Positions 55,029 to 64,000 of a DNA stretch of 64,000 nt are shown here, in pieces (position 1 is the stretch's first letter; each line of letters starts with the position of its first letter). The stretch spans positions 2,542,001 to 2,606,000 of the forward strand of contig NZ_CP130613.1 of NCBI RefSeq assembly GCF_030623445.1. The letters run 5' to 3'. A model generated the notes under the pieces. That model worked only from the letters and a program-made list of their open reading frames with translations, was not told the origin of the DNA and searched no databases. Both the position numbers and the translations under genes were made by a program. The stretch is from Pseudogemmatithrix spongiicola. Its GTDB lineage: Bacteria; Gemmatimonadota; Gemmatimonadetes; Gemmatimonadales; Gemmatimonadaceae.

Positions 55029-55906
55029 AGCGTCGCGACGAAGTCCTCGTGGGAATCGTGGCCACCGTGGCGTTGGTGCTCGGGGTCATCGGGTCCCTGC
55101 TGCTGGCCCGGGGTGGGCTGACCTCCGGGTATCCGGTCTATTCGGTGTTCGCCTGGGGCAGCGGCCTGCGGCCGGGCCAGCCCGTGCTGTTCTCCGGGGT
55201 GACGGTGGGCTACGTCGGCGACGTCAGCATGCGCCGGGACGGCTTCCTCGTCGTGGAGATGCGCATCGACAAGGAGTACCAGCTGCCGACGACCACGACG
55301 GCCCGCATCGTGCCCAACGGGGTGTTCGGCGACATGATGGTGGCGCTGACCGTGGGCGGGATGACGGAGGACGATTTCGCCGTCGGCGACACGCTCCCCG
55401 CAGGCCCGCCGGCCCTCGGCATCGGCGACGTGCTGGCCCGGGTGGACTCGATCGGCCGCGACGTGCAGTCGCTGACCACCGGGCTGAACCAGGAGCTCGT
55501 GCAGAACGGCGGCCTCGCCGAGCTGCGCGCGACGGTGCGCAACGCGAATGTCTTCCTCACGGAACTCACGCGGATCGCGCAGGCGCAGAGCGCCGAGCTG
55601 TCGCGTACGCAGGCGGCGGTGCGCAAGGTGGTGAGCGCCGTGGACTCGGCGGTCGTGGACAGCACTGTGAAGGCGCTTTCCGGCGCCGCCACGGCCATGG
55701 GCGCGCTGGCGACGGACCTGCAGGCGACGACGCAGCAGTTGAACGGCGTGCTGGCCAAGCTCGAGGGTACGGAGGGCTCGGCGGGCCTGCTGCTCAACGA
55801 CCCGGGGCTTTACCGCGACACGCGGGCGCTGCTCACGCGGCTGGACTCGCTGACGGCGGACTTCCAGCGGAATCCGAAGAAGTACGTGAAGCTGTCGATT
55901 TTCTAA
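55025..55906 (+). CDS. mlaD: MCE (MlaD) family substrate-binding protein
   Basis: 293 residues: one N-terminal membrane helix (VGIVATVALVLGVIGSLLLA), one MCE domain (about 38-115; GLRPGQPVLFSGVTVGYVGD) and a long helical C-terminal region (about 135-285) likely to form a coiled-coil tunnel. Longer than E. coli MlaD (about 180 residues), so the helices may span more of the periplasm. Final gene of lptF-lptG-mlaE-mlaD. Confidence 0.92.
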   Translation: MKRRDEVLVGIVATVALVLGVIGSLLLARGGLTSGYPVYSVFAWGSGLRPGQPVLFSGVTVGYVGDVSMRRDGFLVVEMRIDKEYQLPTTTTARIVPNGVFGDMMVALTVGGMTEDDFAVGDTLPAGPPALGIGDVLARVDSIGRDVQSLTTGLNQELVQNGGLAELRATVRNANVFLTELTRIAQAQSAELSRTQAAVRKVVSAVDSAVVDSTVKALSGAATAMGALATDLQATTQQLNGVLAKLEGTEGSAGLLLNDPGLYRDTRALLTRLDSLTADFQRNPKKYVKLSIF

Positions 55907-56124
55907 CGGCAACTGCTTTCACCACGAAGGCACGAACGACACGAAGAGCTGCAACCGCATGTACTGGGGGTCCGCACCGACGTATCGGTGCGGACCCCCT
56001 AGTCTTTGTGGTGGTCGTGTACGCGGCAGCTGCTGTGCGCCCTGCGACCTCCGTAACGCCGTGCCTCTGCGGCAAATCCGTGCCGGTCCTTCGTGTGCTT
56101 CGTGCCTTCGTGGTGATTGCCGTT
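55905..56124. repeat. Nested palindromic element between convergent mlaD and TonB receptor genes (intact copy)
   Basis: Outer arms of about 36-42 nt (55905-55946 and 56089-56124) are reverse complements apart from a 6-nt insert. Inside, a perfect 15-bp stem (55966-55980 with 55985-55999) lies within a weaker stem. Each arm contains the 14-mer TCGTGCCTTCGTGG (minus at 55922-55935, plus at 56100-56113), which is the target of the IS110 element near 63 kb. Confidence 0.85.
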
Positions 56125-56140
56125 GCAGTCGGGGAGCAAA

Positions 56141-56184
56141 ACAGACCGCCCCGGTAGCCAGCGTCGGCTACCGGGGCGGTCTGT
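56141..56184 (-). terminator. Rho-independent terminator of the TonB receptor gene
   Basis: A perfect 19-bp stem (56141-56159 with 56166-56184), six-base loop, followed on the minus strand by TTTT. It lies 22 nt after the receptor stop codon. It could also stop plus-strand transcripts that pass the palindrome. Confidence 0.88.
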
Positions 56185-56205
56185 GTTACGGTCCTGCAAT
56201 CGGCC

Positions 56206-62353: not shown

Positions 62354-62394
62354 CTGCGTTCACCACGAAGCAACCGTGTCTCGAAGGTGAGGAG

Positions 62395-64000
<1,606 letters not shown>

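What the first reader, a model, noticed from the sequence alone, without database searches (positions are those of the whole stretch)
55905..56124. Family of long nested palindromes with conserved outer arms and unrelated inner stems
Two elements (55905-56124 and the split one at 62356-62370 plus 63550-63665) share the outer arm (TTCACCACGAAGGCACGAA and complement) but have different inner hairpins. Both lie exactly between convergent stop codons, 0-4 nt from a stop. Shared arms with variable cores suggest a mobile or gene-converting repeat used as a two-way terminator, not a simple terminator.
Basis: seen in the sequence. Interest (0 to 1): 0.68.

Follow-up and report, generated by a model that had tools for sequence, protein, structure and literature searches.

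The report
Nested palindromes targeted by RNA-guided transposons
A soil-type bacterium (Gemmatimonadaceae) carries about 45 copies of a long hairpin-forming DNA repeat at the ends of genes, and two different jumping genes that choose their landing site with a guide RNA have inserted eight times at the same spot in its arms, with guides that spell out the arm sequence.

Summary
The arm TTCACCACGAAGGCACGAA occurs 78 times (up to 3 mismatches) in this 3.26-Mb genome; the reversed control gives 1. These arms form 31 intact palindromes of 62-222 bp plus split or decayed ones. Cores are not random: 16 share a ~124-bp core and several others share a GGGGGTCCGCACCGA hairpin. Element 62357-63665 is a 124-bp-type palindrome interrupted by an IS110 element. 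All 5 copies of that IS and all 3 copies of a second IS110 lie at the same arm position (CGTGC-CT-YCGTGG). The IS noncoding region carries a bridge-RNA target loop matching this site. Across 16 related IS lineages, guides match their own targets better than permuted ones (0 of 20,000), and the right guide follows each genome's arm type (CACGAAG versus CACAGAG). Palindromes are patchy. At six loci, relatives have either nothing or a palindrome with other arms or cores, so the family turns over while reusing sites. No REP-associated (RAYT) transposase was found in the 13 congeners searched, so how the palindromes spread is unknown. The two-way-terminator role is weakly supported. IS110 targeting of palindromic repeats is known; this repeat family and its arm-matched guides look undescribed in the literature I could search.

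The parts
55906..56129 (.). Palindromic element 1 (CACGAAG outer arms, GGGGGTCCGCACCGA core, remnant of a CACAGAG-type arm at about 56050-56080)
   Evidence: Inverted repeat; fold z -10.6; related element in G002, other palindromes in G005 and G015, none with these arms in the other congeners read
55966..55999 (.). Core hairpin GGGGGTCCGCACCGA / TCGGTGCGGACCCCC of element 1, shared with other elements of the genome and of congeners
   Evidence: Perfect 15-bp inverted repeat; same core in several elements of G000 and at orthologous loci of G002 and G005
56138..56187 (.). Separate hairpin beside the stop of the outer-membrane protein gene; a hairpin at this place is kept in congeners that lack the palindrome (likely that gene's own terminator; not part of the repeat)
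   Evidence: 22-nt arms, 95% complementary; hairpins at the same place in G013, G004, G009, G001, G012 and others
62357..62370 (.). Outer end of palindromic element 2, left of the IS110 insertion; last two bases (AG, = CT on the minus strand) are the presumed recombination core
   Evidence: 14-nt perfect complement of 63652-63665; junction comparison of five copies
62371..63549 (-). IS110-B insertion sequence (1179 nt plus one CT core), one of 5 near-identical copies, all inserted at the same arm position
   Evidence: Alignment of copies, 97-100% identity; junctions
62398..63342 (-). IS110-family DEDD transposase/recombinase, 315 aa
   Evidence: Pfam PF01548 E=3e-21 and PF02371 E=4e-20
63343..63548 (-). 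Noncoding region upstream of the transposase: predicted bridge RNA (seekRNA)
   Evidence: Position typical of IS110; conserved layout across relatives; but the single sequence does not fold better than shuffles
63489..63497 (-). Predicted left target guide GTCGTGCCT (8 of 9 identical to target TTCGTGC-CT)
63465..63474 (-). Predicted right target guide CGCCACGGAG; pairs with CT-TCGTGGTG (2 G-T wobbles) and exactly with the CT-CCGTGGCG site of copy L077
63418..63426 (-). Predicted left donor guide GGACGGTTG (matches IS right end ACGGTTG-CT)
   Evidence: Sequence comparison; inference
63393..63401 (-). Predicted right donor guide GACGTGGAG (pairs with IS left end TTCTATGTC, with G-T wobbles)
   Evidence: Sequence comparison; inference
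63550..63665 (.). Rest of palindromic element 2 (core GGCCCCGC subfamily of the ~124-bp type), right of the IS110 insertion

Best explanation
The two features belong to one dispersed family of intergenic palindromic repeats of a Gemmatimonadaceae genus. The arms are tandem 8-nt units (CACGAAG + 1) in inverted orientation around a hairpin core. There are about 45 copies in this genome, mostly starting within 4-15 nt of a stop codon. The family turns over quickly: it is present or absent at orthologous intergenic sites, and related genomes use other unit 'dialects' (CACAGAG, CACGGAG) at the same sites. The second element is split because an IS110-family element inserted into its arm by bridge-RNA-guided recombination at a CT core. 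The IS's RNA carries a left guide (GTCGTGCCT) and a right guide (CGCCACGGAG) that read the arm. Shown: repeat family, patchiness, site reuse with different arms or cores, 8 of 8 IS110 copies at one arm position, guide-target match beyond permutation. Inferred: that the RNA is made and used, that the palindromes spread by transposition or by conversion between copies, and any effect on transcript ends.
For: 78 arm copies in G000 vs 1 control; 31 intact palindromes with two main core subfamilies. Core helix keeps pairing through two-sided changes (13 cells vs 5.4 shuffled, 0/500). Five IS110-B copies share exact junctions ...CGTGCCTT|CTATGTC ... CGGTTGC|T(T/C)CGTGG and three IS110-A copies sit at the same place; one palindrome holds A in one arm and B in the other. 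A 70%-identical IS110 in a Gemmatimonadaceae MAG (L093, matching G008 locus L162) is inserted in the same kind of palindrome at the same position. Guides at a constant place in the noncoding region match each element's own target: sum 210.5 vs permuted mean 159.7, sd 6.6, 0/20000. Right guide follows arm type: TCACGAAG in G000 IS110-A, TCACAGAG in its G015 relative inserted at CTCTGTGC-CT-CTGTGG. Presence/absence and dialect change at six loci; arms in 36 of 149 relatives, counts 0-129. 30 of 44 facing stop codons lie within 15 nt of the arm; 15 convergent, 14 tandem, 2 divergent.
Against: The noncoding region of IS110-B does not fold better than shuffled sequence (z +0.44). Guides of some relatives match poorly (L095, L170, L186). 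No expression or insertion data. Gene calls around the elements are a crude codon-usage method. No target-site duplication and no transposase for the palindromes were found, so their mobility is indirect.
Confidence: 0.88

Rival explanations
1. The palindromes are dedicated bidirectional transcription terminators that arose independently at convergent gene pairs, and IS110 simply finds a safe landing site in them.
For: Gene 3'-end position, 15 of 31 between convergent genes and only 2 divergent; very stable hairpins.
Against: Shared arms in 78 copies are not expected from independent terminators; no U-tract beyond chance; 14 of 31 lie between tandem genes; most congeners have no palindrome at the element 2 locus; a separate conserved hairpin serves the gene right of element 1.
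Confidence: 0.15
2. The palindromes are REP-type elements moved by a RAYT (TnpA_REP, Y1 transposase).
For: Intergenic, palindromic, dispersed, IS110 target, as REPs are (PMC1525189, PMC2817692).
Against: No Y1_Tnp in this genome or in the 12 congeners searched, including palindrome-rich G002, G008 and G015, while the control genomes score; length 62-222 bp rather than 20-40; no GTAG or CGTC tag in the arm consensus.
Confidence: 0.07
3. The palindromes are old, vertically inherited elements at fixed sites whose arms are homogenised within each genome by gene conversion (concerted evolution), rather than newly inserted mobile elements.
For: Where readable, palindrome-rich congeners G002, G005 and G015 carry a palindrome at 10 of 16 sites occupied in G000, with other arms or cores; G000 and G002 share the core and its place at element 1.
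Against: Clean empty sites in most congeners need many losses; hot-spot insertion explains the same pattern; within-element arm homogenisation is weak or absent.
Confidence: 0.35
4. The match of IS110 guides to the arm is chance in GC-rich sequence.
For: Short guides; GC-rich region; poor fold score.
Against: Permutation test 0/20000 and constant guide positions; shuffled targets reach the own score in 0/200 for IS110-A and IS110-B.
Confidence: 0.02

Closest known systems
IS621 and other IS110-family elements that insert in REP palindromes by bridge RNA (PMC11208160; Tobes and Pareja 2006, PMC1525189)
   Same: DEDD recombinase of the IS110 type, noncoding region upstream of the gene, left then right target guide, CT core, target is a dispersed intergenic palindrome
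   Different: Different palindrome family (longer, unit-repeat arms); two IS110 lineages of one genome converge on the same arm position; right guide differs between genomes in step with the arm dialect
Natural redirection of seekRNAs (ISEc11/ISXne4; ISEc21/ISMch6; PMC11187229)
   Same: Relatives differ in guide and target together
   Different: Here the change follows variants of one repeat family in related hosts rather than unrelated targets
ERIC / intergenic repeat units (127 bp RU-1, PMC2759123)
   Same: About 124-bp imperfect palindrome, intergenic, dispersed, no known transposase
   Different: Different sequence as far as recalled; nested arms of 8-nt units; dialects differ between congeners; found in Gemmatimonadaceae
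REP / GTAG- and CGTC-tagged palindromes with RAYTs (PMC3733652, PMC2817692)
   Same: Dispersed extragenic palindromes
   Different: No RAYT, no tag, longer

Membership tests
IS110 family insertion sequence | DEDD_Tnp_IS110 plus Transposase_20 domains | tested here: met
   Both over Pfam cut-off
IS110 family insertion sequence | Noncoding region upstream of the transposase with target guides in the order left (bottom strand) then right (top strand) | tested here: met
   Left guide near position 51, right guide near 76 of the region in most relatives; own vs permuted 0/20000
IS110 family insertion sequence | Site-specific insertion at a short core without terminal inverted repeats or duplication beyond the core | tested here: met
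   Five identical junctions; removal joins a continuous palindrome
IS110 family insertion sequence | Bridge RNA is transcribed and binds the recombinase | not testable with these tools
   Needs RNA sequencing or co-purification
REP element of the RAYT system | Y1 (TnpA_REP) transposase in the genome | tested here: not met
   None in G000 and none in 12 congeners; control genomes positive
REP element of the RAYT system | 20-40 bp with a GTAG or CGTC tag | tested here: not met
   62-222 bp; arm consensus TTCACCACGAAGGCACGAAGG has no such tag
ERIC / intergenic repeat unit | Sequence similarity to the enterobacterial consensus | not tested
   No ERIC consensus was compared; the Rfam scan of the window gave no match
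Intrinsic bidirectional terminator | GC-rich hairpin followed by a T-tract on both strands | tested here: not met
   One plus-strand match in element 1 (0.7 expected by chance); none marking the palindrome of element 2
MITE | Terminal inverted repeats shared with an autonomous transposon, and target-site duplication | tested here: inconclusive
   No autonomous partner: the IS481-like element inside one palindrome has 7 identical copies, mostly elsewhere. Target-site duplication was not analysed systematically

The most novel reading that the evidence does not exclude
A family of nested palindromes without a RAYT occupies the same gene-end sites across a genus but rewrites its arm 'dialect' genome by genome, and IS110 bridge-RNA guides are retuned to each host's dialect, so that repeat and RNA-guided transposon change together.
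Probability: 0.35. Interest if true: 0.72.

Novelty: new variant of a known kind. Interest (0 to 1): 0.55.

Why it matters
It gives a natural series of IS110 elements whose guides differ in step with variants of one target family, useful for learning how bridge RNAs are retargeted in nature and how much G-T wobble they tolerate. It also exposes a palindromic repeat family with no recognised mover that reuses the same gene-end sites with different arms in related genomes, an accessible case of repeat turnover.

Tried and rejected
RAYT search: none in the genus. An IS481-like element between two arms looked like an autonomous partner but has 7 identical copies, mostly elsewhere. Arm-to-arm conversion within elements: not supported for the 124-bp type, marginal for the others (213/5000); left/right asymmetry of the 124-bp type makes that test weak. 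Literature search for the arm strings found no paper on the repeat. Rfam: no match in the window. No similar sequence in the plasmid collection; 11 viral contigs hold a triple CACGAAG unit, not followed. One structure string was rejected for a typing error and rerun. An unrestricted guide search was replaced by a position-restricted permutation test.

Full report
Observation. The arm occurs three times in the window and 78 times in the genome with up to three mismatches, against one for the reversed pattern. Pairing the arms gives 31 intact palindromes of 62-222 bp and about 14 split, single or decayed ones. Sixteen of the intact ones share a ~124-bp core; several others share the hairpin GGGGGTCCGCACCGA, sometimes with a further layer of CACAGAG arms inside; a few are bare arms of 62-66 bp. 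In the 124-bp type the inner stem keeps its pairing through two-sided changes, notably a G-C / C-G switch in 8 versus 7 copies.

What the split element is. Between its halves lies a gene with both IS110-family domains. The genome has 14 IS110-type genes in three groups. Five are near-identical copies of the window's IS (group B) and all five have the same junctions. Three (group A, about 50% identical in protein) sit at the same position in the arm. The remaining six (group C) are not in palindromes. One palindrome carries an A copy in one arm and a B copy in the other. Arms make up well under 0.1% of the genome, so eight of eight is not chance. Joining the flanks restores a continuous palindrome.

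How the site is chosen. In IS621 a bridge RNA from the noncoding region reads the target with a left guide (bottom strand) and a right guide (top strand), both including the CT core (PMC11208160). The region upstream of this transposase holds GTCGTGCCT and, 25 nt on, CGCCACGGAG. The first equals the left target and core at 8 of 9 positions; the second pairs with CT-TCGTGGTG with two G-T wobbles, and exactly with CT-CCGTGGCG, the site of copy L077. For 16 IS lineages from this and other genomes, boundaries and targets were read from the junctions. With guide positions restricted to one narrow place, own targets score 210.5 in sum against 159.7 (sd 6.6) for permuted targets, none of 20,000 permutations reaching it. 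The test is conservative because several lineages share the target. The right guide follows the arm dialect: TCACGAAG in G000 group A and in L093, TCACAGAG in the G015 relative, which sits in a CACAGAG arm. The weak points are that the single noncoding region folds no better than shuffles and some relatives match poorly.

The palindromes in relatives. The exact arm type occurs in 3 of 17 genomes of the genus. The generalised arm CCACRRAGNCACRRAG occurs in 36 of 149 relatives, in equal numbers on both strands, from 0 to 129 copies, with controls near zero. G015 has 129 such arms but none within two mismatches of the G000 arm. Six orthologous intergenic sites were read. At the element 2 site G005 and G002 carry palindromes with CACAGAG-type arms and the GGGGGTCCGC core, while the other congeners read have short gaps between the stops. 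At the element 1 site G002 carries the same core with an extra layer of arms, G005 and G015 carry palindromes with other arms, and the rest carry only short hairpins. The other four sites show the same mixture. Among readable sites in G002, G005 and G015, 10 of 16 are occupied, far above the few per cent expected if sites were independent; this expectation is a rough estimate from copy number, not a computed null. Hot-spot insertion and concerted evolution of old elements both fit.

Position and function. With codon-usage-scored gene calls, 15 intact elements lie between convergent, 14 between tandem and 2 between divergent genes; 30 of 44 facing stop codons are within 15 nt of the arm. The hairpins are very stable, so effects on RNA 3' ends are plausible, but there is no T-tract signal beyond chance, and at element 1 a separate hairpin beside the neighbouring gene persists in congeners without the palindrome. 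I therefore treat termination as possible but not shown.

What moves the palindromes. No Y1 (RAYT) transposase is present in this genome or in the 12 congeners searched. An IS481-like element inside one palindrome is an unrelated, multi-copy IS. The mechanism remains open.

Known or new. IS110 elements that target REP palindromes are known (PMC1525189, PMC11208160, PMC11187229), and natural redirection of guides has been described (PMC11187229). The repeat family itself was not found in the literature I could search, which excludes most subscription journals and preprints. The organism is placed by a same-genus record (G008; L162 and L093 show the same locus) titled Gemmatimonadaceae bacterium.

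Noticed in passing
G000 C1:3080973-3083406 (L071, L078): One palindrome carries an IS110-A insertion in one arm and an IS110-B insertion in the other, at the mirror positions.
   Followed up: partly
G000 C1:1140254-1141425 (L045): An IS481-like insertion sequence with 7 identical copies in the genome lies inside the core of one palindrome.
   Followed up: yes
L079-L084: A third IS110/IS1111-type group, 6 copies with CGTTA ends, not in palindromes; target not worked out.
   Followed up: no
L094, L097, L098, L099: IS110 relatives in other phyla sit in other palindromic repeats (for example TCACCCTGAGGAGC types in Alphaproteobacteria).
   Followed up: partly
L164, L165, L166, L167, L170, L171, L174, L176, L180: A group of IS110 relatives shares the right target CT-AAC(G/T), which resembles one end of integron attC sites.
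   Followed up: no
G000 C1:299793-299850 and 2076771-2076820: The GGGGGTCCGCACCGA hairpin also matches at places without a CACGAAG arm hit.
   Followed up: no
window 56138-56187: Strong hairpin beside the stop of the outer-membrane protein gene; hairpins at the same place in congeners suggest the gene's own terminator.
   Followed up: partly
L258-L268: Eleven IMG/VR viral contigs carry triple CACGAAG units, two of them as inverted pairs.
   Followed up: no
G029 C2:382645-382708: A run of seven or more tandem CCACAGAG units in a same-family genome, suggesting arm growth by unit duplication.
   Followed up: no
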